IMG/VR virus record: IMGVR_UViG_3300018416_003057 | Location: 1 to 24,736 of that record | Direction: 5' to 3' (one strand) | DNA: 24,736 bases | Source of the DNA: a virus | Shown here: piece by piece, positions 1 to 23,994 of the stretch | Numbering within the stretch: position 1 is the stretch's first letter | Layout: each line of letters begins with the position of its first letter | Position numbers and translations under genes: made by a program | The notes under the pieces: generated by a model | Told to the model about the DNA's origin: nothing | Databases searched by the model: none | What the model saw: only the letters and a program-made list of their open reading frames with translations

Positions 1-203
1 AACTTACGAATCTGACTATTTGTTAAAGGATTCTTTTTCTTGTCTGTAGTATGTGATGTAAATATCATTACATCATCACCTGATGAAACTGATTGCATTT
101 TCTTAGCAAGTTTCATGTGTCCTACTGTCGGTGGATTAAAACGACCAAAAGTAAATGTAGCACCTTTACCTCTTGCTTCTGTTATGTCTTTAAAGTTTTT
201 CAT
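1..203 (-). CDS. Nucleotidyltransferase (cytidylyltransferase-like), 3' end cut off by window
   Basis: The gene starts at the ATG at 203 and runs off the left edge, so only the first 67 residues are visible. They include a GRFNPPTVGH stretch (about residues 20-29), which fits the nucleotide-binding T/HxGH signature of the cytidylyltransferase-like superfamily (adenylyl- or cytidylyltransferases that activate a phosphorylated substrate with ATP or CTP). The substrate cannot be told from this fragment. T4-like marine phages often carry such a gene. The N-terminus, MKNFKDITEA, resembles the T4 capsid-targeting peptide with an I-T-E cleavage-type site, so the protein may be packaged in the head (inference). 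It overlaps the end of the upstream 92-aa gene by 14 nt, suggesting coupled translation. Confidence 0.8.
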   Translation of the reverse strand, partial: MKNFKDITEARGKGATFTFGRFNPPTVGHMKLAKKMQSVSSGDDVMIFTSHTTDKKKNPLTNSQIRK

Positions 204-468: not shown

Positions 469-814
469 CTGTAAGTCCTAAATCTTTTGCGTAATATGGT
501 AGTCTACAACTCCAATATCTAGGTGTCAATTTATCATTTGCAGTATCACAATTATGTCTATCAGCAAATGCTTTTCTTCGTGCTGGGTCTTTTAATTTTA
601 CTGACAAATTAGACCCACCATCTTTAGCACCGAATGATACTTTTTTTACTTTGTCTCCATCTTTTACATAGACATAAAATTTCTTAGCACCACCTCTTTT
701 TGGTTTGTTGATTTCTTTGTTATCATCTTCTGTAACTTCAATCATAGGTCTTTCTAAAGGTACATACTTACCTTCAAATTTACCGTAATCTATATGTTCT
801 AGAAATGATTTCAT
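446..814 (-). CDS. Conserved phage protein with C-terminal YWSCRLPYYAK motif, 122 aa
   Basis: The N-terminal 40 residues are variable and charged. A conserved-looking domain follows: KRGGAKKFYVYVKDGDKVKKV, then DPARRKAFADRHNCD, then PRYWSCRLPYYAKDLGL. This resembles a domain of unknown function shared by marine T4-like phages and large DNA viruses of algae; I associate it with DUF5872 from memory and cannot verify that. Two cysteines (in HNCD and WSCR) could form a metal site or a redox pair. The protein is basic. It starts with MKSF like several neighbours, but has no clean [L/I]xE site nearby. It overlaps the upstream basic protein gene by 4 nt (ATGA-type junction). Confidence 0.8.
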   Translation of the reverse strand: MKSFLEHIDYGKFEGKYVPLERPMIEVTEDDNKEINKPKRGGAKKFYVYVKDGDKVKKVSFGAKDGGSNLSVKLKDPARRKAFADRHNCDTANDKLTPRYWSCRLPYYAKDLGLTGGGNFFW

Positions 815-1515
815 TTTTTAGCTTTTCCTTTCATTTTGTTCTTTCTTCTTCTAGCTGCATCAGCTTTTGGACTGTCACTAAACGCTACTGCTTTGTCAAA
901 AGCTTTTTGTGATACTGCACCTTTTGGATTCATTTTCTCACCAGAACCTCTTTTAATTCTTTCTCTTTTCTTTCTGATATTATCCCAAAGACTTTCAGCT
1001 TTTCTTTTACCGTCTTTATCATACTTACCAGATTTCTTTTTAGCAATAGCTATTGCTGCTTGTTGTGCTGGTGATACAGCTTCTCCTCTGACTTTAGCTG
1101 CTAAGTCACTATCGGCTTTACCCCAAGTACCTTTACCTTTTGTAATAAAAGAATTTACTCTAGCCAATCCCCATTGGACAGCTGTAGTTCCTGGTCTATG
1201 TCCTGTTTGCCATGCTTTGACACCTCTTTTATATACTTGTTTTAATACACCCAATGGCATACCTGACTTCTTAGCTTTATTTGATAATGCTTTGTCTGGA
1301 TTACTTTCACCAAACATCTTTTTAAACTTCAAAGTATGTTTACTTGGTTTAGTCTTAGCATCATCATCACCAGGAGCAGGTTTAGTACTACCTTTAGCAA
1401 AGTGTTTTGCTCTAGCTTCTTTTTCTTTCTTACTCAATCCTTTGTAATACTTTTTAGGTTGTGTCCCAGGTTCGTCTTTTACTTGTGGGTCTTGTGGTTG
1501 TTTTCTCTCTTTCAT
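811..1515 (-). CDS. Highly basic conserved phage protein, 234 aa (possible DNA-binding or packaged protein)
   Basis: Very rich in Lys and Arg throughout. It has a KYYKGLSKKEKEARAKHFAKG segment near residue 22, a SKHTLKFKKMFG segment near residue 58, and a well-ordered central domain (about residues 83-145) including GVKAWQTGHRPGTTAVQW and ARVNSFITKGKGTWGKADSD. The C-terminus is a charged tail ending in Lys repeats. I associate the central domain with a DUF shared by phages and large DNA viruses (DUF5824 in memory, unverified). Its role is unknown; basicity and its place in a late block suggest binding to packaged DNA (inference). The gene touches the 410-aa gene upstream with a one-base stop/start overlap. 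Confidence 0.8.
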   Translation of the reverse strand: MKERKQPQDPQVKDEPGTQPKKYYKGLSKKEKEARAKHFAKGSTKPAPGDDDAKTKPSKHTLKFKKMFGESNPDKALSNKAKKSGMPLGVLKQVYKRGVKAWQTGHRPGTTAVQWGLARVNSFITKGKGTWGKADSDLAAKVRGEAVSPAQQAAIAIAKKKSGKYDKDGKRKAESLWDNIRKKRERIKRGSGEKMNPKGAVSQKAFDKAVAFSDSPKADAARRRKNKMKGKAKK

Positions 1516-2747
1516 TACTTGTCCCAGTTTTTAGCTACAGTAAAGTTATTAAAACTGAATTCCATTTTGTCTACAATTTTAACAGCTTCACCTGTTCTGT
1601 CAATAGCAACATAACCTTCTGGTGCTACTACTTTAAGTCCATTATCAACTTTAACGAATGTCTTTGCTAGACCCTTTGCTTGGTCCATTTTCTTAACAAT
1701 CATTAACTTTGCTTCAATCAAAAATCTCATAAAATCTACGACTTGTTCTAATGTTTTAAGTGAACTATTGATCACTCTTATATGTTCTCTTAACTTAGAT
1801 TGTTGTACAGGACTATCTGATTTGTTCTTCTTCCACCAATTTTGAAAGTGAACTAGATATCCTTTTACAGCATCTTTACCTTTCGGTAATTTTTTTCCTT
1901 CTCTTGTATATGTATTTAGATAAGTTTTGAACCCAGCTCCAGCAGCTGATGTACCTAAACTATCTTGCCATTTTAAAAACTTATTGAATTTACCTGAGTT
2001 TATTCTATGAAATTGTTTACCTGCACCTGACAATAATTTTGTAACTTTTACAGTATCTTTTGCTGTAAATGTAGCTGCTCCTGTTACATCTCTATATGTT
2101 GCATCATCTTGCCATACAGTAGATGATGAACCCGGTAACTTAGCTCCAAACGATGCTTTTAAATCTTGTATTGTATTACCTTTATATGTTGTATGCCATA
2201 CAATACCCACTTTAGCTTTTTTTATTTGTCTACCAATCTCTGAATCAGATGGTACAGCATACAAAATAGTATTTGGTTGAAATGTAATGTGTTTAACACC
2301 ATCGATTGTCATTGTTGATAAATCGTCTGTAAACATTAAATCACCTTGAAGTATTTCTTTCATACCCAATTTACTGAATTCATCTAAACAGACTTTCATC
2401 TTTTTGTTTAACTCACCATCAGTATCTGCATCGATATCTTCGTATGTATGATAATAAGGTTGTGGATCTTGAGTTTTTCTAAACAAAGCTTTCTTAGCTA
2501 CAAAGAATTTACCTGTCTCAGGATGAGGACCAGCAAACACTGCTGGAGCTCCGTCCCACTTGACTGTAACATTTAGTTTAGATTTACCACCACCAGCAAA
2601 CATATCTCTTAATGATTGAAGAAACTCTATTGCACTTCGACCACCAGCAATACCAAAATTTAGAATTTCATCTTCTAGATGTTCTAAATGTAAATTTTTA
2701 CCTGCTGCTTCTGTTAGATATTCCATTACTTCAATGAACCTTTCCAA
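1515..2747 (-). CDS. Large conserved phage protein with nucleotidyltransferase/ligase-like motifs, 410 aa
   Basis: In cyanophage-type genomes this family is annotated as hypothetical. The sequence shows KWDGAPAV at residues 63-70, which looks like motif I (KxDG) of the covalent nucleotidyltransferases (ATP-dependent DNA/RNA ligases, capping enzymes). EGYV lies at 377-380 and VKIVD at 389-393, which look like motifs IV (EGxV) and V. LQGDLMF at 133-139 could sit at the motif III/IIIa position. The spacing between motif III and IV is unusually long (about 240 residues), so the fold assignment is inference. The N-terminus (MERFIEVMEYLTEAAG) carries an LTE|A site like the T4 head-protease site. 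The gene overlaps the PAP2 fusion gene by 22 nt. Confidence 0.8.
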   Translation of the reverse strand: MERFIEVMEYLTEAAGKNLHLEHLEDEILNFGIAGGRSAIEFLQSLRDMFAGGGKSKLNVTVKWDGAPAVFAGPHPETGKFFVAKKALFRKTQDPQPYYHTYEDIDADTDGELNKKMKVCLDEFSKLGMKEILQGDLMFTDDLSTMTIDGVKHITFQPNTILYAVPSDSEIGRQIKKAKVGIVWHTTYKGNTIQDLKASFGAKLPGSSSTVWQDDATYRDVTGAATFTAKDTVKVTKLLSGAGKQFHRINSGKFNKFLKWQDSLGTSAAGAGFKTYLNTYTREGKKLPKGKDAVKGYLVHFQNWWKKNKSDSPVQQSKLREHIRVINSSLKTLEQVVDFMRFLIEAKLMIVKKMDQAKGLAKTFVKVDNGLKVVAPEGYVAIDRTGEAVKIVDKMEFSFNNFTVAKNWDK

Positions 2748-5101
2748 TTCTTAGTTGTAGTATTTATTTCAAACTTGGTAGCGAAACCCGATCCAGAACT
2801 TGTAGCAATACCTACAACATTCCATTGTGGTTCAGGTGGCATACCATCTAGACTTTCGACTAATAATACATTGATACTATTATACTCTTTACCTGATACT
2901 TTCATTATCTTAATGACTAATACAGGAAAATCATTATACTCTTTACCGATCTTTGCTAGGTCTTCTACTTTTTTCTTTTCAAAATCATCTCTTGTACCCA
3001 TGTGTTTTAGTTTGTTACCACCATACACAATTACTAGAGGTAAAGCTGTGTTACCGAATCTTGCTTCACCTTCAAATTCAGCTGCTAATGCAAACAATGA
3101 TGTAGATAAATTTTCATAACTACTCATTTTACTTTCTACATATTTTAATATACCTTTGATATAATTCATACCAGACCAATTAGAAGTCAATTTGAATACA
3201 GTATCCATTGATGTGCCTAAACCTAATACAACTTCATCACCTTCTTTTACAGAATCTAGTTCTCTTAATTTTTTAAGATCACTTGATGATATTTTGACAT
3301 CACCACCCTCAATCACAACTATAGGTTCTATTGGTCTATCTTTTACAGCAAATTGAGAGTTTAGTTTTTTAATGAGTTTTTTGTTTTCTTGATGTAGTTT
3401 ATTGATTGGATCACCTGTCATAGCTTTATTAAATGCTTTGATTTCTCTAACTAAAGGTTTATTAGCTTTAATAGTTCTAGTACCTTCTGTTATGACACCA
3501 CCTTGTGATTGTAATTCTTTGACTATTGAATTAGCTGATTTACCAATTTTATTTGATTTAACTTGTTTATCAGTAAATGATTTTGCTGCTTGATTTGCTG
3601 ACTTAGCAAGTTTTGAGAAAACACCTTTTATTTTCTTGTATAAAAAGTCTACACCTTTAGATACTTTAGCACCCAACTTAGCTAGAACAGCAGTTCCTTT
3701 ATTAAATATATCACTTATACCTTCTGAAATAAGTTCAGCTTCAGTATCCCATTCTAAATGATTCTGTTGAATTGTTTGAATTTTAGTAGGCATATTACCA
3801 GCTATACCTGTCATAAATCTAGCATTAGCAAACATACCGACTTTACCAATTCTAGCTGCTCCGACTTTAGCATCTTTTTTTAATGATACTTGATAAAATT
3901 CTACAACCGATTTATCATTAGAATCTAATAAAGTTATTTTACTTTTAGTATCTGTTTTTATTCTTCTATGTTGTGCTTGTAAATCTAGACCTTTCATTTC
4001 TTTCATTATTCTGAATAAATCTGATCTAGTACCTTTTGATATCATCACAGCATCTGCAGTATTTACTTTATCTGGATTTGGTACTTCAAATATTTCAGGT
4101 GCGTTATCATAATAATCACCAACACTATTATGAATAAAATCTTTAAAAGATCCTAGTTGTCTCATTGAACCACCTAATTCTTTACAGTAGTCTAACATTA
4201 TTTTCTCACCATTATCAACATTAGATGTAAATTCTTCTATCCAAGATTTACATATTGGTGAAAATTCTTGATGTGATAGTATCGACAACCCTTTACCCAT
4301 ACCTTCAACAATTGCACAACCCTCATAAATTTGTGTTCTGGCTGTAGGTGACTTTGGTAATGTATCATTAATTGATATGAATACATCTTCTTCTTTGAGT
4401 TCGAATGATTCTAATTTTAGATCAGGTTCCATACCTTTTTTAGATAGATCATATAGATGATCAGCTAATCTGATACCAAATTCTGTATCAGTAGGATAAT
4501 GAGCACCTGCTATTTGTCTACTATGACCAATCCTTTTACCTATATCTAGAATGTTCTTTCTATGTTCTAATGGTGCTTCATCAGCAACTAATAATGATAC
4601 TAATCTACCTTGAGTAGCATGTCCCGAAGGATATGAAGGTGTACCTGCTGTTTTAAGTGGGAATGTATTTAATGGTAGACCTAACTCTTTTGCTAATGCT
4701 TTTGGTCTAGGTCTATTGTAATGTCTTTTGAGTGCTAGTATAATAGGATTCGATTGATCTCGTAATGATTTTATTCGTGTGAAATCTACTTCAATACCAT
4801 ATTCATCTAAGTATTCTTTGAATGGTCTAATAACTTTGATGTCATATTCAACCATTTCATCTTCCCATTGAGTTCTAAACTGACCAAGAGAAATAAGATG
4901 TTGTATTTCTTTCTTAGTCTTTTCAGATGAATTTTTAGGAAAAGGATATTGTTGCCAATCTTCTAGATTGATATGTTTGAATTCTGAATAATCTTTTTTA
5001 AGTTGTTTTAATCTATCAGCTGATAGCTTTACACTATGACCTAGTTTGTCTAACTTACTTTCTTTTGATTCTTCTTGGATTATTTCTGCAAATGATTTCA
5101 T
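2726..5101 (-). CDS. PAP2-type phosphatase domain fused to a large phage-specific C-terminal region, 791 aa
   Basis: Residues about 60-220 carry all three PAP2 (type 2 phosphatidic acid phosphatase / vanadium haloperoxidase-like) motifs: Kx6RP at K125...R132-P133, PSGH at 158-161, and SRx5Hx3D at S194...H201...D205. The catalytic residues therefore look intact, and the domain should hydrolyse a phosphomonoester or lipid phosphate. No transmembrane helices surround the motifs, so it resembles the soluble class A acid phosphatases. The remaining ~570 residues are unrecognised; residues ~460-530 are Lys-rich and amphipathic. The N-terminus MKSFAEIIQE|ES matches the T4 capsid-targeting peptide and its I-x-E site, hinting at packaging and injection. 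No Shine-Dalgarno is seen; a CATAAATA box lies 7 nt upstream of the ATG. Confidence 0.9.
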   Translation of the reverse strand: MKSFAEIIQEESKESKLDKLGHSVKLSADRLKQLKKDYSEFKHINLEDWQQYPFPKNSSEKTKKEIQHLISLGQFRTQWEDEMVEYDIKVIRPFKEYLDEYGIEVDFTRIKSLRDQSNPIILALKRHYNRPRPKALAKELGLPLNTFPLKTAGTPSYPSGHATQGRLVSLLVADEAPLEHRKNILDIGKRIGHSRQIAGAHYPTDTEFGIRLADHLYDLSKKGMEPDLKLESFELKEEDVFISINDTLPKSPTARTQIYEGCAIVEGMGKGLSILSHQEFSPICKSWIEEFTSNVDNGEKIMLDYCKELGGSMRQLGSFKDFIHNSVGDYYDNAPEIFEVPNPDKVNTADAVMISKGTRSDLFRIMKEMKGLDLQAQHRRIKTDTKSKITLLDSNDKSVVEFYQVSLKKDAKVGAARIGKVGMFANARFMTGIAGNMPTKIQTIQQNHLEWDTEAELISEGISDIFNKGTAVLAKLGAKVSKGVDFLYKKIKGVFSKLAKSANQAAKSFTDKQVKSNKIGKSANSIVKELQSQGGVITEGTRTIKANKPLVREIKAFNKAMTGDPINKLHQENKKLIKKLNSQFAVKDRPIEPIVVIEGGDVKISSSDLKKLRELDSVKEGDEVVLGLGTSMDTVFKLTSNWSGMNYIKGILKYVESKMSSYENLSTSLFALAAEFEGEARFGNTALPLVIVYGGNKLKHMGTRDDFEKKKVEDLAKIGKEYNDFPVLVIKIMKVSGKEYNSINVLLVESLDGMPPEPQWNVVGIATSSGSGFATKFEINTTTKNWKGSLK

Positions 5102-14858: not shown

Positions 14859-16709
14859 TCAATCTTTGTAAAGTTTACGAACCTCACCATCTATTATTGG
14901 TGCGTACATTTTAACAGGTTCTTCTTTACCTTTGACTTTGACTTCACCTAATATACTCATTGGTATATCACTACATTGAAGATACGAATATTCAGACACG
15001 ATTATAGGTGTATCTTCTTGTCTCGTTTGTGCTTCTAATCTAGCTCCAAGATTAACAGCGTCACCAACAACACTATAATCCATTCTTGTTTCTGAACCCA
15101 TATTACCTACAATACATACACCCGTATTCACACCAGTACCAAATTTGACTCTTGGTAATCCCATATCTTTCATCTTTTCTTCTAGTTCGTCACCTAGAAG
15201 TTCTATTTCGATTGATGTTTTAACAGCCATCTCAGCATGATTAGGACAAAGGATCGGAGCATTCCAAAATGCCATAATACAATCGCCCATATACTTATCA
15301 ATAGTACCACCATTCTTTAATACAATCTTAGTCATTTTATCTAGAAACTCATTGATCAATTCTACTAATCCCTCTGGATCATCTTCTTTCATATAACGCT
15401 CACTTATGGGTGTGAATCCAACAATGTCGGCGAACATGAAACTCATCTCTTTTCTTTCACCACCTAGTTTCATTAGACTTGGATCTTTGACAATCATATC
15501 AACATATTCAGGTGATATGTAAGTACCAAACTGTCCTTTAATTTGTTGTTTGAGTTTGAACTGAACATAGAAGTTGTTAAAACTCGAATGACTAAATATA
15601 AGTATCAATAAGATAAGGGGATATGAAAAATCAATCAAGATTCCGGAAGCGAAGACTTCAAACCCAGCGAAGACAACGCCGGTTACACTCCCACCGAAAA
15701 CTAAAGCTGATAACCATATCGGTAAATGATAAACCGATAGGAGAAGTATTAGTCCCAAGAAAAACATTAGACTTACCTCACCCAATAGAACCCATTGAGG
15801 TCTACTAATTTGTTTACCACCTGTAAGAGTATGAATTACTGATGCTTGAATATCATGAGGATATTTTAGACCCATTGGCGTAGTAACTAATGGTGAGATA
15901 CCTTCTGCTGTTGTACCAATGATAACTGTTTTACCTTGAAGATCAGGTAGAACATCACCATATTGATATCTCTCAAAAGTATTAGTCCAATCTACATATA
16001 TTGATCCTGTGTAATCTGTTTTAACAGGTTCATATGGTGGTATTCTCATATTCTCAATACCTGTTTCTTCTACTTTCATTGTATATGATTTTTTGTTCGC
16101 CATGACACGAACTGTTTCCATACCAAAACTAGGATATAATTTATTTTGTACTGAAATGACTAATGGTATTCTTCTTACTGAACCATCAACTTCTGGAGAT
16201 GACGATAACATTCCTACCCCATCAGCAGCTGATCCGTGTATATTATTTACTATAGAGTTGTACCTGTAAGCAAAGGTTGTTGCATCACCATTACCTAAAG
16301 TAGCAGTTCCTACATGAGGTGCTACACTTTCTAACCCCTTCTGAGATGTAGTTGATGACAAAACAATACCATTATCTTTTACCCAAGATGAAAATATCTC
16401 GTCACCACCAAATCTATCTACATCAGCAAACATAGTAGTGAATCCTATCACACCAGCATTACTGTTTCTTAAATCTGATATCATCTGAGCAAATTGATGT
16501 CTTGGAAATGGCCATTGACCAAATTGTTCTAAAGATTTTTCTCCGATATCGATAAGAACTATCGATTCGTTTTGAACTTGTTCTTCTGCTTTCTGATAAT
16601 AATCAAAATTGATTACTCTGAGTTGTTCTATAATATCAGGATCATAAACTCTGAGTCCGATTAAACTGACAAGAACTATTATACATGACCAAATAGAAGT
16701 TAGTTTCAT
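14859..16709 (-). CDS. CHASE2-domain class III adenylate cyclase, membrane-bound, 616 aa
   Basis: An N-terminal membrane segment (residues ~6-20) leads into a periplasmic CHASE2 sensor (~25-300, including WPFPRHQFAQMISDL and DGSVRRIPLVISV..YPSFGMETV). Three membrane spans (~306-326, 331-352, 355-373) and a linker (FGTYISPEYVDMI) precede the cyclase domain (~418-600). Catalytic residues are present: metal ligands D428 (FADIVGFT) and D476 (KYMGD), adenine-selecting K472 and D544 (RMDYSVVGD), and transition-state N553 and R557 (VNLGARLE). It should make cAMP. This is the last gene of the curli-like operon, joined to the second curlin-like gene by an ATGA overlap. A CHASE2 cyclase in a lytic-type phage is unexpected; the FecR neighbour echoes bacterial FecR-CHASE2 cyclase pairs (recollection). 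Confidence 0.93.
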   Translation of the reverse strand: MKLTSIWSCIIVLVSLIGLRVYDPDIIEQLRVINFDYYQKAEEQVQNESIVLIDIGEKSLEQFGQWPFPRHQFAQMISDLRNSNAGVIGFTTMFADVDRFGGDEIFSSWVKDNGIVLSSTTSQKGLESVAPHVGTATLGNGDATTFAYRYNSIVNNIHGSAADGVGMLSSSPEVDGSVRRIPLVISVQNKLYPSFGMETVRVMANKKSYTMKVEETGIENMRIPPYEPVKTDYTGSIYVDWTNTFERYQYGDVLPDLQGKTVIIGTTAEGISPLVTTPMGLKYPHDIQASVIHTLTGGKQISRPQWVLLGEVSLMFFLGLILLLSVYHLPIWLSALVFGGSVTGVVFAGFEVFASGILIDFSYPLILLILIFSHSSFNNFYVQFKLKQQIKGQFGTYISPEYVDMIVKDPSLMKLGGERKEMSFMFADIVGFTPISERYMKEDDPEGLVELINEFLDKMTKIVLKNGGTIDKYMGDCIMAFWNAPILCPNHAEMAVKTSIEIELLGDELEEKMKDMGLPRVKFGTGVNTGVCIVGNMGSETRMDYSVVGDAVNLGARLEAQTRQEDTPIIVSEYSYLQCSDIPMSILGEVKVKGKEEPVKMYAPIIDGEVRKLYKD

Positions 16710-17524
16710 TGTTGAGTTACACTAATCGAACAACCACTAGCTGTCTGACAATTTTGTGATAAAGAATATGATTGAGATGTATTTCCTTTTTGTAGTAAAT
16801 CTAAATCTGTAGGATAAGCACCATTCAATTCGATTGTTGCCGTATGTGCACCATTGTCTCTTTGATTAATCCATACATCATTACCATCATTGTTAATTGT
16901 AAGAGTTAATGTTTTGTCACCATTCTGTGCTTGTCTAGCGAATACATCATTATCATCAGCGTATATATTTACAGTCATAGAATGTGATATACTACTTGTA
17001 TCCATCTTTTGACTTCCAATAAATTTATTATCATCACCATGTATATCTAATCTTACAAAGTTTCCACCTGGTTCATTACCGTCATAGTCCCAAGTTGGTG
17101 ACCAGTTAGAAGTATCATTCAATGAATAACCTTGTCCAAATTTTACTGTATTGTCATCACCCCAAATATGAAATTGAAAATCGTTATCATTACAATTTGA
17201 AGTTGAACACTTTTGACGAATATCTATATTATTTCTTAGTCCGTCTAAATCACCACCCCAACTATATCCTGAACCCCATGAATCAGTATAACCAATATAG
17301 TTTTTATTTCCTAATTGTAAAAGATTAATAGTGTTGTTATTGTGATCAAAAGAAAATCTAATTAAATTATCATGTCCAATCTGTTCAATACTTAGATTTA
17401 AATTATCACTACCACCTGTAGCGACTTGATCTAAATGAATATGATTAGGATCAGCCAGACTGTTTAATGATAATAACGACACTATCGCCGTCATTAACAA
17501 TAATTGAATTTTTAACACCTTCAT
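16706..17524 (-). CDS. Secreted curlin-like repeat protein 2, 272 aa
   Basis: A signal peptide (MKVLKIQLLLMTAIVSLLSLNSLA) precedes a mature region of short beta repeats. LNLSIEQIGHDNLIRF at about 42-57 contains the curlin motif QxGxxN; later units follow as INLLQLGNKN, FHIWGDDNTVKF, LDIHGDDNKFIG, VNIYADDNDVFARQ, TINNDGNDVWINQ and LDLLQKGNTSQ. These fit a beta-solenoid of CsgA/CsgB type, where Gln and Asn ladders stack into amyloid. Cysteine pairs occur at 106/111 and 259/265. ATG 17524 has a GAGAG upstream; the first 74 nt overlap the FecR gene in another frame. It is probably exported through the CsgG-like pore encoded upstream. It could instead be a non-amyloid adhesin. Confidence 0.8.
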   Translation of the reverse strand: MKVLKIQLLLMTAIVSLLSLNSLADPNHIHLDQVATGGSDNLNLSIEQIGHDNLIRFSFDHNNNTINLLQLGNKNYIGYTDSWGSGYSWGGDLDGLRNNIDIRQKCSTSNCNDNDFQFHIWGDDNTVKFGQGYSLNDTSNWSPTWDYDGNEPGGNFVRLDIHGDDNKFIGSQKMDTSSISHSMTVNIYADDNDVFARQAQNGDKTLTLTINNDGNDVWINQRDNGAHTATIELNGAYPTDLDLLQKGNTSQSYSLSQNCQTASGCSISVTQQ

Positions 17525-18611
17525 TTTCACTCTCTATTTTTACTGCTGATTCAATTGGTACTCTTATATCTATGATTCCGTTAACTTCTCTATAAAACCA
17601 TATCTGACCTGTTGAATCATCTATTATTGTATTATATTGAGTATTCTTATCGAATCCCAATGCTGTACCCACTATGTTACCTTCAGTGGATCCTGTTTTA
17701 CCTTTGTCTCTTTGTTTCTGTTTTAAAATGTTTACTTCTTCGAAAAGTTTAAGAACATCTTGAAGAAAGTCAACATCTAATAAATCTATATCAAGTTCTG
17801 AGAACTCTAAATCTTCACCACCATCATCCCAATCTTCTTTTAAATAATCTATATCAAGATCATTAAAATCTAGAAGACTGTCACTACTATCATCTTGAGT
17901 TTCTGCAGCTTCGTCTGTAGCATCTTGAACTTCTTGTGGTGGTGATACAATAAACATATTATCTATTGCATCTAAATTCATAATATTATCTAACACTACA
18001 GGTTGTACAGGTGGTGTCGATATACTAGACACCATTGTAGCTTGAAATGCTTCATTCAAAACAACTACACCACCTTCATTCGTAACTGTTATTTCACCAG
18101 ACGGACTACAATCACCATCAACTGTACATTCTGTTTCCGGTAGAAGTATTACTAAACTCCGACCAAGTTCATCTACACTAGTTGTAAAACTTGTGCCTCG
18201 AACACCAATCGTTGCCGTTGGTGTTGTAATGACGATATTTTCTTTTGGTACTAGACCCAACTTACCTGTTGTAAATCTAGCTGTGCCTGATACAAAACTC
18301 ATAGCCATTTTTGACTTTGAGGGATCAGGATCAAAATAATATTCGTCTATTACTACTTCGGTATGCTCTGTCAACTTCAAGTTAGTTTCATCAATAAACT
18401 TGATGTTCATTCTACCTTGAGCTGTTTCTATAGAATCTTTAAAGTATATGTCTTCTCCGATTCCACCGGATAAAGTTTCACCTGTATCTCTTACTATACC
18501 AGAACTACCATTGTGTTCTGTTATATCACCTATATCATTTGCATAAACAAAAGTAGTAAATAGACAAAAATTAATCGCCAGTATCTTTTTGATTGATTGT
18601 AATTGTAGCAT
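17451..18611 (-). CDS. Secreted FecR-domain protein with acidic linker, 386 aa
   Basis: A signal peptide (MLQLQSIKKILAINFCLFTTFVYA) is followed by a FecR domain (about 28-145): GIVRDTGETLSGGIGEDIYFKD, then ETAQGRMNIKFIDETNLKL, and NIVITTPTATIGVRGTSF. FecR domains occur in periplasmic signalling proteins and in exported proteins of surface-polymer loci. Residues 225-290 are extremely acidic with a near-repeat (DFNDLDIDYLKEDW / EFSELDIDLLDVDF), perhaps Ca2+- or protein-binding. Cys162 and Cys168 may pair. The ATG at 18611 gives a clean signal peptide; an upstream TTG at 18632 would only add seven residues. It overlaps curlin-like gene 1 by 41 nt and gene 2 by 74 nt. It could be an assembly factor, anchor or sensor partner for the cyclase. 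Confidence 0.85.
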   Translation of the reverse strand: MLQLQSIKKILAINFCLFTTFVYANDIGDITEHNGSSGIVRDTGETLSGGIGEDIYFKDSIETAQGRMNIKFIDETNLKLTEHTEVVIDEYYFDPDPSKSKMAMSFVSGTARFTTGKLGLVPKENIVITTPTATIGVRGTSFTTSVDELGRSLVILLPETECTVDGDCSPSGEITVTNEGGVVVLNEAFQATMVSSISTPPVQPVVLDNIMNLDAIDNMFIVSPPQEVQDATDEAAETQDDSSDSLLDFNDLDIDYLKEDWDDGGEDLEFSELDIDLLDVDFLQDVLKLFEEVNILKQKQRDKGKTGSTEGNIVGTALGFDKNTQYNTIIDDSTGQIWFYREVNGIIDIRVPIESAVKIESENEGVKNSIIVNDGDSVVIIIKQSG

Positions 18612-19299
18612 TTTCACTATCAAAATCTGCAATCAGTTCACTATGACACGAATTTACACCACTAGGGCATGTTCCAGAACTCTGAACGATATCAATATTA
18701 CCATTAGACTGAATTAACTCTAAATCAATTTTATGATAAGCTCCATCAGTTTGACTTGTATTAACATCATTTGAACTACCTGTAACATCTAAATCGTATG
18801 TTGCGTCGTCAACTTCAACAACAGTTGTAAATACATTAGAACTACCTGTAACATCTAAATCAAAATCTAGTCTTTCAGAAGATTGAGCTGCTCCCCAATC
18901 TAAGTCCATAGTATTTGAACTACCTGTCCAATTTGCTAATAAGTTAGATGAGTCAGCTGAACCTGATGCACCAATAGTCTGATCCCAATCATTACTACTA
19001 CCTGTCATATTGACACTATAAGTAGATTGATCGAGAATCATTGGTCCATAAATTTTGTTCATGTTACCAATCATATCAAAATTAATTGTATTAGTTGTAC
19101 CTGTAATTACCATTGCTGAACCACATAGTCCGCTTGATATGGATCCACATAATTTGTTACCATATCCAATCTGATCAATAGTTAATGTAAGAGTATCACC
19201 TGTTTGATCAAGTTTGATTGCATTATCAGTTGTTGCTTCAGCAAATAATAAAGTTGGTGTAAATAATACTAATGCTAAAATTTTATTTAACATTTTCAT
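18571..19299 (-). CDS. Secreted curlin-like repeat protein 1, 242 aa
   Basis: A signal peptide (MKMLNKILALVLFTPTLLFA) is followed by LTLTIDQIGYGNKL (39-50), a canonical curlin unit with QxGxxN, and INFDMIGNMNKIYG. Four TGSSN units then occur at residues 99, 125, 151 and 173, spaced about one or two beta turns apart with alternating Asp/Leu strands (DLDVTGSSN). The pattern fits an Asn-ladder beta-solenoid. A Cys pair (211, 218) lies near the C-terminus. I start at ATG 19299, which has GAGG 8 nt upstream and a clean signal peptide; the frame opens further to 19362. It overlaps csgG by 17 nt. Likely substrate of the CsgG/CsgF pore (inference from operon order). Confidence 0.8.
   Translation of the reverse strand: MKMLNKILALVLFTPTLLFAEATTDNAIKLDQTGDTLTLTIDQIGYGNKLCGSISSGLCGSAMVITGTTNTINFDMIGNMNKIYGPMILDQSTYSVNMTGSSNDWDQTIGASGSADSSNLLANWTGSSNTMDLDWGAAQSSERLDFDLDVTGSSNVFTTVVEVDDATYDLDVTGSSNDVNTSQTDGAYHKIDLELIQSNGNIDIVQSSGTCPSGVNSCHSELIADFDSENATITINQKDTGD
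18769..19005 (-). repeat. DNA-level repeats encoding the TGSSN units of curlin-like protein 1
   Basis: Four copies of ACAGGTAGT(T/A)C-type sequence (minus strand), near 19005-18991, 18927-18913, 18849-18835 and 18783-18769; the last two share a longer match encoding DLDVTGSSN. Near-identical DNA suggests recent unit duplication or recombination. Confidence 0.7.
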
Positions 19300-20146
19300 T
19301 TTCTTTTTCCTCGTTATTATTAGTTTCTTCTGGCCATTGAATTGTCCAAAAACCTCTTTCATCGCCTTGAAGAATTAATTCGTAAACAGCAGCTTCGATT
19401 GCTGATCTTACACTTCTGGTTACACTCTCATTCTCGGTCATTCCGTCTTCAACTTCTACTAACTGAGTATCCATCTCAACGAATCTAAACACATCAAATC
19501 CTTCAGCGACCGATAAAATTGTCTTTGATGTTTGTACATTTAATAAAATTTCACCTGTAAGAACACTTACTGCTCTCAAGTGAACAACTACGATATCTCT
19601 ACGGTAAGCTTGTTGAGCACCTATGCCAAGATATCTAGCACCTCTTCCTCCAGTTTCTATATTGGTATCGTACCCAATAATACCACCTTCAAGAATAATC
19701 CCAGCGAATAAGAGTGGTGCTAATTTTTTCTCCTCTTGATACGCTTCTCTTGTTGTTCTTACTATTTGACGCTCTCTAGTCAAATGGTCTATACCAACTC
19801 TTTCTACTACACGAAACCATGTACCATCACCCGCTGTTTTCAGAGCATCAATTAACATAGTCTCTGTACCTTGTGATACTGCTGTACTAAACATAGCTGC
19901 ATCACCTTTCTGTTTTCTTTGACCTGTTTTATCTAAAAACTTATAAACTGCTATAACAGGTTTTTCTACAGCTGGTGGTAGATTCAATAGTTTTTCGTGT
20001 GTTGGTAATTCTATAGTTTTAGGTTCTTCTGCACACTCAACAAAACTTGCACAGTTAGTATCGTGTATTCCTTTTACACTTACCATAGATGCACAACTAC
20101 TTAATAGTAGAAGGCTAACAACACCTATCCCTATCCTAAAGTTCAC
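19283..20146 (-). CDS. csgG: CsgG-like curli secretion lipoprotein (outer-membrane pore)
   Basis: CsgG forms the nine-subunit outer-membrane channel that exports curli subunits. There is a lipoprotein signal with lipobox LSSC (Cys18). Family hallmarks follow: VIAVYKFLDKTGQRK, FSTAVSQGTETMLIDALK, WFRVVERVGIDHLTRERQIVR, ILEGGIIGYDTN, GGRGARYLGIGAQQAYRRD, VLTGEILLNVQTSKTILS and a C-terminal DERGFW. At 287 aa it equals E. coli CsgG (about 277) in scale. The constriction loop differs: the E. coli loop ends YPASNF, whereas here it reads KGDAAMF, keeping the Phe but not the Tyr and Asn. The start is GTG 20146, with a GGAGG contained in the last codons of the CsgF-like gene and no gap between them. 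Confidence 0.95.
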   Translation of the reverse strand: MNFRIGIGVVSLLLLSSCASMVSVKGIHDTNCASFVECAEEPKTIELPTHEKLLNLPPAVEKPVIAVYKFLDKTGQRKQKGDAAMFSTAVSQGTETMLIDALKTAGDGTWFRVVERVGIDHLTRERQIVRTTREAYQEEKKLAPLLFAGIILEGGIIGYDTNIETGGRGARYLGIGAQQAYRRDIVVVHLRAVSVLTGEILLNVQTSKTILSVAEGFDVFRFVEMDTQLVEVEDGMTENESVTRSVRSAIEAAVYELILQGDERGFWTIQWPEETNNNEEKENENVK

Positions 20147-20707
20147 TTAACCTCCGAATGAACCATTACCAATTGGTATGGTTATAATTGTCTCTGTTCC
20201 GTCTTCGTCAACAATAGTTAAAACAATAACTTCTTCACCGAGAACACACCCTGTCATTGCTTCTGTATCACAAGTTGTTTTTAGATATGATATTGTATTA
20301 CCTTCTAAAGCAAAACTACCAAAATCAGATTCTACACAGGTTGGATCTAATGTTAAATCACATTGTTTAAATAATGAATCAACTAATTGTTTTGAAAGTT
20401 GTGAGTAAATACGGCTTTCTAAGTTCCTTATGAACTTAGCCATTGTTGTGTTTTCAGCTTCTCTCTGAGCTGCTAATAAAGCTGATTCTATATCTTTTTG
20501 TATAGCATCTCGTCTAGACTTTTCTTGGTTCTCAATAGTGAGATAATGTGCTGATGTACCTACACCTGAAAAGCTAGGATTTTTAAATTTATGAGTAAGT
20601 TCATCTGCATGTACACTAGGGCTTAAACCTACTAAACCAAATACAAATATACTAATTAAAGCGACTAACTCTAAATTATTTCTTATTTTTTCTTTCCTGT
20701 TTTTCAC
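20147..20707 (-). CDS. csgF: CsgF-like curli assembly protein
   Basis: CsgF plugs the outer face of the CsgG pore and nucleates curli. After a signal peptide ending SVHA (residue 34), the mature protein starts DELTHKFKNPSFSGVG, close to the E. coli CsgF N-terminus (F-x-F-R-N-P-x-F-G-G), the part that inserts in CsgG. A helical stretch (AKFIRNLESRIYSQLSKQLVDSLF) and C-terminal strands (VIVLTIVDEDGTETIITIPIGN) follow, as in CsgF. Two Cys pairs (CDLTLDPTC and CDTEAMTGC) are extra features. The start is GTG 20707, the only start giving the signal peptide, overlapping the membrane-protein gene by 32 nt. Directly precedes csgG, as csgF precedes csgG in bacteria. Confidence 0.88.
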   Translation of the reverse strand: MKNRKEKIRNNLELVALISIFVFGLVGLSPSVHADELTHKFKNPSFSGVGTSAHYLTIENQEKSRRDAIQKDIESALLAAQREAENTTMAKFIRNLESRIYSQLSKQLVDSLFKQCDLTLDPTCVESDFGSFALEGNTISYLKTTCDTEAMTGCVLGEEVIVLTIVDEDGTETIITIPIGNGSFGG

Positions 20708-21928: not shown

Positions 21929-22987
21929 TTAAGGTGTTAATACCGGCCAAATTGACCGATCTTTATACTTTTCTAGTATTCTTTTTGTTGGTTTATCAGC
22001 TACTTCTTCTATACCATTTAAACCAGGGTTTGCGTTGACTTCTAAACAATAAGGTAGTTCTTTCTCTCTATCTTTTGAGGGTAGAAGATCAACACCGACT
22101 AGTCTACCACCAAATTCTTCTGCTATTCTAATCGATTCTGTTCTTTCTAGTTCTGTTAATTCTATTGATTCAGCTGTAGCACCCATAGAAACATTACTTC
22201 GAATATCATCACTCATAACATTTCTTTTCATAGCACCAACAACTTCACCTTCATTAACAATAACTCTTATATCATAATCTATTTTAATATATTCTTGAAG
22301 TAGTAAAGATAAGTACTTATTATATAATAAAGTCATTTGTACTAATGCTTTTAGTGATCTCATACTCTCTACAACAACTACACCGACACCAGTTTGTGAT
22401 CCAGAAGATGATTTCAATACTACAGGAAAATTAGTATTCAATCTTTTAAATACATCTTCTACTGTTTCTGAATGTACAATAGGTTCTGTTTTAGGGGTTC
22501 TAATATCGTATTGTAGACATTTTAAGTAACTCATATATTTACTATTACATAAGTCATAACAATCTATTGAATTCAAAACAAAATAACCTTCTTTTTCAAG
22601 ATAACTCATCATATCATACCAATGTCTACTACCTGTAAAACCTAATGTACCTAATCCTCTCGGCATGATAATCCAATCAGACTGATTTATTTTTATTGGT
22701 TTTTGATATTTGTATTCACCTTTATGATCTGGTAATATAACTTGTAATTCATCATCTAATGGTAAAGAATGAATTTCGTGTCCATTTTCTATTGGATTCA
22801 TGTGCATACCAACAAAATCAGCATGTACAACATTCAGTCCTAGTTGTTTTGCTGTCTTATCGATTATTGGTGTTGAAGGTGTTTCTCTTGCTGTGTCTCT
22901 GACTTGAGCACCAGAATGACTTATAACAAGAATATTATAAGGTTTGATATCTTCTGATAATTGTACGAATTCTTTAAGACTTTTCAT
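21929..22987 (-). CDS. RimK-like ATP-grasp ligase, 352 aa
   Basis: ATP-grasp enzymes of the RimK group join an amino acid (often glutamate) to a carboxylate; E. coli RimK modifies ribosomal protein S6. Here the ATP-grasp domain spans about 150-335: FPVVLKSSSGSQTGVGV (Lys192 and glycine-rich loop), DYDIRVIVNEGEVVGAMKR, GVDLL (Asp300) and the Mg-binding LEVNANPGLNGIE (Glu316, Asn318). The N-terminal 140 residues form a pre-ATP-grasp-type domain. Active-site residues look intact. The N-terminus MKSLKEFVQLSE|D matches a T4-like capsid-targeting peptide with an L-x-E site, so the enzyme may enter the cell with the DNA. The gene overlaps the 78-aa gene by 14 nt. Its target is unknown. Confidence 0.9.
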   Translation of the reverse strand: MKSLKEFVQLSEDIKPYNILVISHSGAQVRDTARETPSTPIIDKTAKQLGLNVVHADFVGMHMNPIENGHEIHSLPLDDELQVILPDHKGEYKYQKPIKINQSDWIIMPRGLGTLGFTGSRHWYDMMSYLEKEGYFVLNSIDCYDLCNSKYMSYLKCLQYDIRTPKTEPIVHSETVEDVFKRLNTNFPVVLKSSSGSQTGVGVVVVESMRSLKALVQMTLLYNKYLSLLLQEYIKIDYDIRVIVNEGEVVGAMKRNVMSDDIRSNVSMGATAESIELTELERTESIRIAEEFGGRLVGVDLLPSKDREKELPYCLEVNANPGLNGIEEVADKPTKRILEKYKDRSIWPVLTP

Positions 22988-23211: not shown

Positions 23212-23994
23212 TTACTGATTGACTAGTTGATCATATTCTAGATCATTTTCTAGATGCATAATATAATCGTCCATATTATGATCTGCTATAAAATCTAGTC
23301 TTCCTTTGAAAATTGTTTTGAGTAATGACCAACCTTTGTCACGAATTCTTTCAGTTGAATAACGACCTAGTTCTTTAACTTCACCTGTAGATTTTATATA
23401 CAAACATTTACCATTGTGTCTCCAACGAATGTATGTTGGTACACAAGGAACTACATCATTATTATTTACAAATCTTTGATGATTTAAATTAGCATCACAC
23501 CATTGACTAAACAAAGGACCACCTGCTCTTGGTGAACCAAATGTGAATAATGTATCTATATTATGATGATTTTTATATTCTAATCTCTGTGCTAGAATCG
23601 TTGCCATAGCACCACCAAGTGAATGACCACATGCCCAAATAGATTTATTTTTTGATATTCTAGAAAGAAGTTCTTCGACATCATCATAGACTTTATCGAC
23701 TTCTTCTTTGAATCCTTGATGAATTTTATTACCTGATACTGAATCAGCTTTGAATATTTCTAAGTCAGCGTACACATCATTCATTTCTGAAGGTTCTGTA
23801 CCTCTACATGCTATTGCAACATCATGTTTACTAGAGAACACATAAGTCTGTGCACCATCTACATCAAACAAGACTGTTTTTGTAAAACCTAATAACTTTG
23901 CTGATAGTCTAGCATCTTTTAAATTTGAGTACGCTATTTTAGCTAACTTTGCAAATAATACTCGTTTTTCTTTAACAGATAGATCATTGATCAC
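23212..23994 (-). CDS. Class 3 lipase-like alpha/beta hydrolase, 260 aa
   Basis: Fungal-type (class 3) lipases hydrolyse acylglycerols or phospholipids. The nucleophile elbow is ACGHSLGGAMA (Ser125 in GHSLGG); IACRGTEP near 61 is the oxyanion strand; FTFGSPRAGGP and VNNNDVVPCVP (Asp180) are typical; His239 in ADHNMDDYI completes the triad. No signal peptide, so the enzyme is cytoplasmic or released on lysis. The start is GTG 23994, which overlaps the RegA stop by one base (TAGTG). A lipase inserted between RegA and downstream genes is unusual for T4 itself; related genes occur in some marine T4-like phages (recollection). It could aid lysis or free host fatty acids. Confidence 0.88.
   Translation of the reverse strand: MINDLSVKEKRVLFAKLAKIAYSNLKDARLSAKLLGFTKTVLFDVDGAQTYVFSSKHDVAIACRGTEPSEMNDVYADLEIFKADSVSGNKIHQGFKEEVDKVYDDVEELLSRISKNKSIWACGHSLGGAMATILAQRLEYKNHHNIDTLFTFGSPRAGGPLFSQWCDANLNHQRFVNNNDVVPCVPTYIRWRHNGKCLYIKSTGEVKELGRYSTERIRDKGWSLLKTIFKGRLDFIADHNMDDYIMHLENDLEYDQLVNQ

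What the first reader, a model, noticed from the sequence alone, without database searches (positions are those of the whole stretch)
1515..2747. Hypothetical late protein with covalent nucleotidyltransferase (ligase-like) motifs
KWDG (63-66), EGYV (377-380) and VKIVD (389-393) match motifs I, IV and V of ATP-dependent ligases and capping enzymes, in the right order, but with an insert of about 240 residues between motifs III and IV. If real, it would be a novel packaged ligase or nucleotidyltransferase family in marine T4-like phages.
Basis: inference. Interest (0 to 1): 0.58.

Follow-up and report, generated by a model that had tools for sequence, protein, structure and literature searches.

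The report
Capsid-tagged ligase-like enzyme of marine phages
This phage gene, until now filed as a protein of unknown function, looks like an enzyme that joins or modifies RNA ends through a lysine-bound nucleotide, and in many marine phages it carries a short tag of the kind that sends proteins into the virus head, so it may be injected into the host along with the DNA.

Summary
The motifs are real and in order. The gene is 1515-2726(-), 403 aa (the ATG overlaps the upstream stop), so Lys63 becomes Lys56. It belongs to Pfam DUF6267 (function unknown; 461 of 50,697 phage records). In 100 non-redundant members K56, D58, K79 (Ia), D129 (III) and H178 (IIIa) are invariant; E370 (IV) is 99/100, K383 (V) 98/100. 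A model (pLDDT 90) superposes on RNA ligases: VIA-align ranks 1-10 are all RNA ligases (best Z 7.7, 177 residues, 4.0 A). Foldseek and profile scores are not significant, so the case rests on motifs, register and superposition together. A helical insert of about 150 residues lies between IIIa and IV. New here: 71 of 99 members start with a T4-type capsid-targeting tag (shuffled mean 5.3). A tagged NMNAT-like adenylyltransferase, found in virions of other phages, lies downstream (also in this window) or is fused. An untagged DUF6267 protein was absent from a published virion proteome. Best reading: a divergent covalent nucleotidyltransferase, probably an RNA ligase, packaged in tagged versions. 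Activity, substrate and packaging of this protein are untested.

The parts
1515..2726 (-). DUF6267 gene, 403 aa, ATG start overlapping the upstream stop; divergent RNA-ligase-like covalent nucleotidyltransferase
2709..2726 (-). MEYLTE (residues 1-6), capsid-targeting-like tag, predicted prohead-protease cut after E6; same layout as the start of T4 Alt, MELITE
   Evidence: residues 1-12 have pLDDT under 50
2670..2690 (-). HLEHLED (residues 13-19), near-invariant element upstream of motif I, role unknown
   Evidence: H16 100/100, D19 99/100, E18 98/100, H13 96/100
2550..2561 (-). motif I KWDG (residues 56-59), predicted nucleotide-accepting Lys56
   Evidence: K56, D58, G59 100/100
2481..2501 (-). 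motif Ia region VAKKALF (residues 76-82), K79
   Evidence: K79 100/100; in register with Ia of an RNA ligase profile
2340..2348 (-). motif III QGD (residues 127-129)
   Evidence: D129 100/100; aligns with VQGEL of an RNA ligase profile
2184..2207 (-). motif IIIa GIVWHTTY (residues 174-181), H178
   Evidence: H178 and Y181 100/100; His at motif IIIa also in RLIG1
1671..2117 (-). helical insert, about residues 204-352, between IIIa and IV
   Evidence: helices 222-349 in the model; III-to-IV gap 228-279 in 82 long members, 159-170 in 7 short members
1608..1619 (-). motif IV EGYV (residues 370-373)
   Evidence: E370 and G371 99/100
1572..1583 (-). motif V VKIV (residues 382-385), K383; second lysine of the T4 ligase motif replaced by V385
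   Evidence: K383 98/100; IV-to-V spacing 13 as in T4 Rnl1
2726..5101 (-). upstream overlapping gene, 791 aa, tag MKSFAEIIQE, PAP2 domain, rest unassigned
811..1515 (-). DUF5824 protein, 234 aa; in HTVC008M this domain is the C-terminal part of the NMNAT-like protein
1..203 (-). start of NMNAT-like (CTP_transf_like) gene, MKNFKDITE tag then GRFNPPTVGH; cut by the end of the record

Best explanation
DUF6267 is a divergent member of the covalent nucleotidyltransferase fold, of the RNA-ligase type. Mechanism: Lys56 attacks the alpha-phosphate of ATP (or the AMP half of NAD+) to form lysyl-AMP; K79, D129, H178, E370 and K383 hold the nucleotide and metal; AMP then passes to a 5'-phosphate end, most likely of RNA, for sealing. 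The helical insert between IIIa and IV takes the place of the separate substrate-binding domain of other RNA ligases. In tagged versions such as this one, the N-terminal MEYLTE targets the protein to the prohead core, the prohead protease removes it, and the enzyme enters the host with the DNA, together with an NMNAT-like adenylyltransferase, to act at time zero (for example on cleaved tRNA). Shown by computation: motifs, conservation, superposition, tag statistics, gene association. Inferred: catalysis, RNA as acceptor, packaging, role. My estimates by step: fold and lysyl-nucleotide chemistry 0.85; packaging of tagged versions 0.65; RNA ligation rather than another acceptor 0.5.
For: Conservation of all seven catalytic positions in 100 members (98-member set). 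Model pLDDT 90, pTM 0.85. VIA-align ranks 1-10 all RNA ligases: 5cou Z 7.7/177 residues/4.0 A, 1xdn 7.7/190/4.1, 6n0t 7.0, 2hvq 7.0, 2c5u (T4 Rnl1) 6.9; first unrelated row Z 6.3 with 81 residues; by my reading of the titles 26 of the 50 rows listed are ligases. A poorer model from 27 sequences also gave ligases at the top. hhalign puts I on I, Ia on Ia, III on III and IV on IV against an Rnl5-like RNA ligase, and IV-V on IV-V of T4 Rnl1. IV-to-V spacing 13 as in T4 Rnl1. RLIG1, a proven RNA ligase, uses the same set (KxDG, Arg Ia, Glu III, His IIIa, Glu IV, Lys V), and its top Dali hit was Naegleria RNA ligase too (PMC11494293, passages). Tag: 71 of 99 members vs 5.3 after shuffling vs 156 of 939 other ORFs. 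T4 Alt begins MELITE, T4 gp23 has FLTE/AEIG, the S-SZBM1 capsid protein ILTE/AAPT. NMNAT-like ORF in 30 of 46 loci with at least 3 kb downstream, in this window, fused in S-PM2.
Against: Foldseek finds no significant PDB match (best RNA ligase E 1.1 with the good model, 0.18 with the first), and Z 7.7 lies in the range the tool calls typical for models without a clear match. Profile-profile P-values are 0.012-0.07 for the best ligase comparisons, and an unrelated control (the PAP2 gene) reached 0.046-0.065. No Pfam ligase model is among the 25 families shown for the 98 members. Motif V lacks the second lysine of T4 Rnl1/Rnl2. The only published virion list that I could check for a phage with the gene lacks it, though that copy is untagged (S-SZBM1_141). 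28 of 99 members have no recognisable tag.
Confidence: 0.6

Rival explanations
1. Same fold and lysyl-nucleotide chemistry, but the acceptor is not an RNA end: it nucleotidylates a protein, a small molecule or a DNA end, or caps RNA.
For: The fold is shared by DNA ligases and these also appear in the list. The insert is unlike any ligase domain I know of, and the frequent partner is a small-molecule NMNAT-like adenylyltransferase.
Against: Ranks 1-10 are RNA ligases, and DNA ligases come lower. H at motif IIIa and a single K in motif V recall RLIG1. No OB domain follows motif V: the protein ends about 20 residues later.
Confidence: 0.27
2. Real enzyme, but not packaged: it works in the infected cell with the replication genes among which it lies, and the N-terminal segment serves another purpose.
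For: The gene lies beside gp41, uvsX and polymerase genes. Untagged members exist (28 of 99) and the untagged S-SZBM1 copy is absent from virions.
Against: The tag has the length and (I/L/V)xE end of T4 head tags, is the unstructured end of the model, varies as a removable unit, and is shared with the adjacent NMNAT-like protein that is found in virions of S-SM1 and S-SZBM1.
Confidence: 0.28
3. Pseudoenzyme: ligase fold kept for nucleotide or RNA binding, without catalysis.
For: Second lysine of motif V lost; no biochemical data.
Against: All other catalytic positions are kept at 98-100 of 100 across members down to 25% identity.
Confidence: 0.07
4. Structural or scaffold-bound internal head protein with chance motifs.
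For: Tag; large helical region.
Against: Conservation concentrates on ligase motifs, and the motif region matches ligases in structure.
Confidence: 0.04

Closest known systems
Pfam PF19782 DUF6267 / phrog_455
   Same: Full-length match, E 7e-91 and 6e-85
   Different: Neither library assigns a function; no paper in the held library names PF19782 or DUF6267
RLIG1 (C12orf29) type RNA ligases
   Same: KxDG, basic residue at Ia, acid at III, His at IIIa, EG at IV, Lys at V (PMC11494293 passages)
   Different: RLIG1 is minimal; DUF6267 carries a helical insert between IIIa and IV, an upstream HxEHxED element and a capsid tag; no sequence-level match was shown
Naegleria/Deinococcus-type RNA ligase (Rnl5) and trypanosome REL1
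   Same: Best superpositions, Z 7.7; motifs I, Ia, III and IV in register by hhalign, QGD against QGE
   Different: Profile score not significant; no N-terminal OB domain; the Rnl5 label of the bacterial profile is mine, from recall
T4 Rnl1 (gp63) and Rnl2
   Same: EGYVA with Lys 13 residues after the Glu; Z 6.9 and 7.0
   Different: Motif V K-x-K becomes K-x-V; helical domain inserted rather than C-terminal; no Pfam RNA_lig_T4_1 or RNA_ligase match seen
T4 internal head proteins and Alt
   Same: Short N-terminal tag ending in (I/L)xE
   Different: Unrelated payload; cleavage and packaging not shown here

Membership tests
DUF6267 (PF19782) | score over curated cut-off (27 bits) | tested here: met
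   305.7 bits, full length
covalent nucleotidyltransferase superfamily | motif I KxDG with invariant Lys | tested here: met
   100/100, filter caveat; 4 of 290 unfiltered frames without it are truncated or frameshifted
covalent nucleotidyltransferase superfamily | conserved residues at Ia, III, IIIa, IV, V in order | tested here: met
   K79, D129, H178 100/100; E370 99/100; K383 98/100
covalent nucleotidyltransferase superfamily | nucleotidyltransferase core fold | tested here: inconclusive
   ranks 1-10 of VIA-align are RNA ligases, 168-202 residues at 4.0-4.7 A, Z 6.7-7.7; Foldseek E not significant
covalent nucleotidyltransferase superfamily | lysyl-NMP intermediate | not testable with these tools
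   needs labelled nucleotide
T4 Rnl1 / Rnl2 families (PF09511, PF09414) | score over Pfam cut-off | tested here: not met
   no match for the window protein at E up to 10; not among the 25 families shown for 98 members
T4 Rnl1 / Rnl2 families | motif V with two lysines (K-x-K) | tested here: not met
   V385 in place of the second Lys; T4 FKIK and IKCK
RLIG1-type RNA ligase | full active-site set incl. His IIIa and Lys V | tested here: met
   by position only, against residues named in PMC11494293
RLIG1-type RNA ligase | sequence homology | not tested
   no RLIG1 sequence was compared directly; a PDB profile search found no ligase
T4-type internal head protein | N-terminal capsid-targeting tag | tested here: met
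   MEYLTE in the window; 71 of 99 other members
T4-type internal head protein | presence in the virion, cleaved | not testable with these tools
   no virion data found for a tagged member; untagged S-SZBM1_141 absent from Table 1 of PMC9146016
NAD+-dependent ligase (LigA) | NMN-binding domain Ia | not tested
   the HxEHxED element is a candidate only

The most novel reading that the evidence does not exclude
A virion-borne, self-fuelling RNA repair pair: DUF6267 is an NAD+-using (or dual ATP/NAD+) RNA ligase whose released NMN is turned back into NAD+ by the adjacent or fused NMNAT-like enzyme. Both are sent into the head by the same kind of tag and injected to mend host or phage RNA cut by defence nucleases before any phage gene is expressed. 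The HxEHxED element would bind the NMN half.
Probability: 0.1. Interest if true: 0.87.

Novelty: new variant of a known kind. Interest (0 to 1): 0.62.

Why it matters
It would give a function to a gene family found across cyanophages and other marine T4-like phages, add a ligase architecture with the helical domain inside the catalytic domain, and be, as far as I know (recall), the first RNA-ligase-type enzyme carried in a phage head. It makes testable whether marine phages bring RNA repair into the cell at time zero. It also suggests that an N-terminal (I/L)xE tag can be used to list injected proteins of marine T4-like phages from sequence alone.

Tried and rejected
hhalign of the whole family against T4 Rnl1, Rnl2, two bacterial RNA-ligase profiles and a mixture, with seven unrelated families as controls: no significant score; only the register is telling. 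phmmer and profile search of PDB sequences: no ligase. Foldseek PDB and BFVD: PDB not significant; BFVD matches under E 1e-3 (13 rows) appear to be the family itself, including the S-PM2 fusion, but some are unnamed or otherwise named entries whose identity I did not check. SWI2_SNF2 matched 17 of 98 members weakly in Pfam (best E 4e-4); not followed up, no function taken from it. PADLOC: nothing. NCBIfam: nothing for the window protein; the neighbours resemble NMNAT models below their cut-offs. PF09511 in 18 records that hold the gene: none, but the control genomes also stayed silent, so this says nothing. S-CREM2: no gene annotated at the expected place beside its virion cytidylyltransferase, so no test. 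S-CREM1, S-SCSM1 and DLP6 papers: the passages seen give no usable virion data for this protein. Late promoter: ATAAATA lies at 2761-2767(-), 35 bases before the ATG, but the window has 11 matches against 15.5 by chance, so 'late' is neither shown nor refuted. The strict first version of the tag pattern gave 63 of 100 vs 163 of 1148 control N-termini vs 67 of 1148 shuffled; the wider version is; both were written after seeing the N-termini, and members were given the benefit of any Met within 22-25 residues before the core.

Full report
What is there. The listed ORF 1515-2747(-) holds the three motifs at the stated residues. The gene very probably starts at the ATG at 2726: it overlaps the stop codon of the upstream gene (2728-2726), and close relatives have no upstream extension. 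The protein is a full-length member of Pfam DUF6267 and phrog_455, both without function. tblastn finds it in 461 of 50,697 phage records, mostly Synechococcus and Prochlorococcus phages, also Pelagibacter, Methylophilales, Vibrio, Stenotrophomonas and Pseudoalteromonas phages.

Conservation. From 294 loci I obtained 290 usable frames; three were dropped for in-frame stops (L084, L225, L070), and one further locus gave none, which the script did not name. Filters on the N-terminal element, K[WYF][DE]G, length and ambiguous letters left 277 sequences with the window, and removal of those 80% or more identical left 100. K56, D58, G59, P61, G66, K79, Q127, D129, N152, Y156, H16, H178, Y181, N271 and K340 are identical in 100 of 100; E370 and G371 in 99, K383 in 98. 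The 98-sequence alignment used for modelling agrees.

Structure. A first model from 27 sequences was poor (pLDDT 74.5), yet VIA-align ranked Naegleria RNA ligase entries at the top (Z 6.3). The second model, from 98 sequences, has pLDDT 90 and pTM 0.85, with only residues 1-12 below 50 as a stretch. VIA-align then gave RNA ligases at ranks 1-10: Naegleria RNA ligase 7.7, trypanosome REL1 7.7, fungal tRNA ligase 7.0, T4 Rnl2 7.0, T4 Rnl1 6.9. These rows align 168-202 residues, from the segment before motif I to beyond motif V. The unrelated rows below (cytochrome b562, DnaK and others) align about 70-150 residues, as I read it on the helices. Z under 8 is not proof by the tool's own warning, and Foldseek is not significant. 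Profile comparison is also not significant, but its best alignments put the right motifs on one another: TVKWDGAP on TEKLDGSS, LQGDL on VQGEL, PEGYVA on REGVVV, and EGYVAID...AVKI on T4 Rnl1 EGYVAVM...HFKI. Taken together I hold the fold and chemistry at about 0.85.

Catalytic set. RLIG1, shown in print to be a 5'-3' RNA ligase, uses a KxDG lysine, Arg at Ia, Glu at III, His at IIIa, Glu at IV and Lys at V, and its own best Dali hit was Naegleria RNA ligase (PMC11494293, passages). DUF6267 has a residue of the same kind at each place, including the His at IIIa. The assignment of Ia, III and IIIa was made by me with the alignment in view. The difference from T4 Rnl1 and Rnl2 is motif V (K-x-V, not K-x-K); bacterial RNA-ligase-like proteins found here also show K-A-I or K-L-V. 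So I do not file it under Rnl1 or Rnl2; it is a separate family of the same fold.

Insert. The distance from III to IV is 228-279 in 82 long members and 159-170 in 7 short ones (89 of 100 measurable). The block is helical in the model (222-349). It holds two invariant residues, N271 and K340. Its likely role, inferred, is to bind the substrate.

Tag. The residues before the core read MEYLTE/AAG here, and MENFKTHITE, MIKFKQFIAE, MQFSDFITE and the like in relatives. T4 Alt begins MELITE, T4 gp24 MAKINELLRE, and T4 gp23 has SFLTE/AEIG (cut sites recalled). T4 capsid-targeting sequences are 10-20 residues and the protease cuts after Glu (PMC5694885, passages). 71 of 99 members fit the pattern, against 5.3 on average after shuffling the same residues, and 156 of 939 other ORFs in the loci, some of which look like tagged proteins themselves. 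Short forms and some long forms are untagged. The capsid protein of S-SZBM1 has ILTE/AAPT, so the same cleavage rule is plausible there.

Natural control. In S-SZBM1 the DUF6267 protein (SSZBM1_141) starts MAKNTHLEH, without tag, and is absent from the 30 proteins found in virions; the next gene, the cytidylyltransferase (140), starts MRFRQFIIE and is present, as is 139 (PMC9146016 sections 16 and 27). In S-SM1, DUF6267 (SSM1_189) is untagged; the neighbour SSM1_190 (T4-GC190) starts MKKFSAFLNE and T4-GC190 was detected in virions (PMC3037559 sections 14 and 26). Whether SSM1_189 was detected I could not see: the table is a supplement. The authors of PMC10665884 (section 19) caution that such proteins might be contaminants.

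Partner. An ORF with the NMNAT-type GRFNPPxxGH motif lies in 54 of 99 loci, and in 30 of the 46 with at least 3 kb downstream. It is closest to nicotinamide/nicotinate nucleotide adenylyltransferase models but below their cut-offs. In S-PM2 it is fused to DUF6267 in one 591-aa protein. In this window its start (MKNFKDITE, then GRFNPPTVGH) lies at 203-1(-), cut by the end of the record. A tag is seen in 30 of 45 of these with a simple N-terminus. In Melnitz, neighbours 15 (MQGFKTFLSE) and 18 (MKKFSEIIE, NMNAT-like) flank the tagged DUF6267.

How it most likely works. Shown: motifs, conservation, superposition, tag, association. Inferred: lysyl-AMP formation; transfer to an RNA 5' end; packaging and injection of tagged versions; a role in mending RNA, such as tRNA cut by host nucleases, by analogy with T4 Rnl1 (noted in PMC11494293). 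An NAD+ link with the NMNAT-like partner is possible but untested.

Print. No paper in the held library contains DUF6267, PF19782 or phrog_455, or 'T4-GC 71'. Searches that combined cyanophage, RNA ligase, ejection and capsid targeting gave no listing that describes this (listings only).

Noticed in passing
window 14859-20707 (-): A curli-type export cluster in a phage: CsgG (19283-20146, E 9e-52) and CsgF (20147-20707, E 1.5e-8), FecR domain protein (17451-18632), two repeat-rich secreted-looking proteins without Pfam match (16706-17530, 18571-19362), and a CHASE2 plus class III nucleotide cyclase (14859-16709, E 2e-39 and 1e-18). A membrane cyclase in a phage is unusual.
   Followed up: partly
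window 2726-5101 (-): 791-aa protein with tag MKSFAEIIQE, a PAP2 phosphatase domain in the first quarter and about 550 residues without a convincing Pfam or PHROG match.
   Followed up: partly
L089 and L139, frames upstream of the match: Two DUF6267 frames have about 130 extra N-terminal residues that still end in a tag-like FESFLAED or FESFLNES before the core.
   Followed up: no
L191 7718-8380 (HTVC008M): Neighbour with zeta-toxin/AAA_33 P-loop, weakly like seryl-tRNA kinase, start MIPFILKE: a possible tagged kinase beside the ligase-like gene.
   Followed up: partly
window 2670-2690 (-): Near-invariant HxEHxED element about 40 residues before motif I, in tagged, untagged and short members alike; no explanation.
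   Followed up: no
window 21929-22987 (-): RimK-like ATP-grasp protein starting MKSLKEFVQLSE, another possible tagged enzyme.
   Followed up: no
window 23212-23994 (-): Class 3 lipase domain protein, E 1.5e-23.
   Followed up: no
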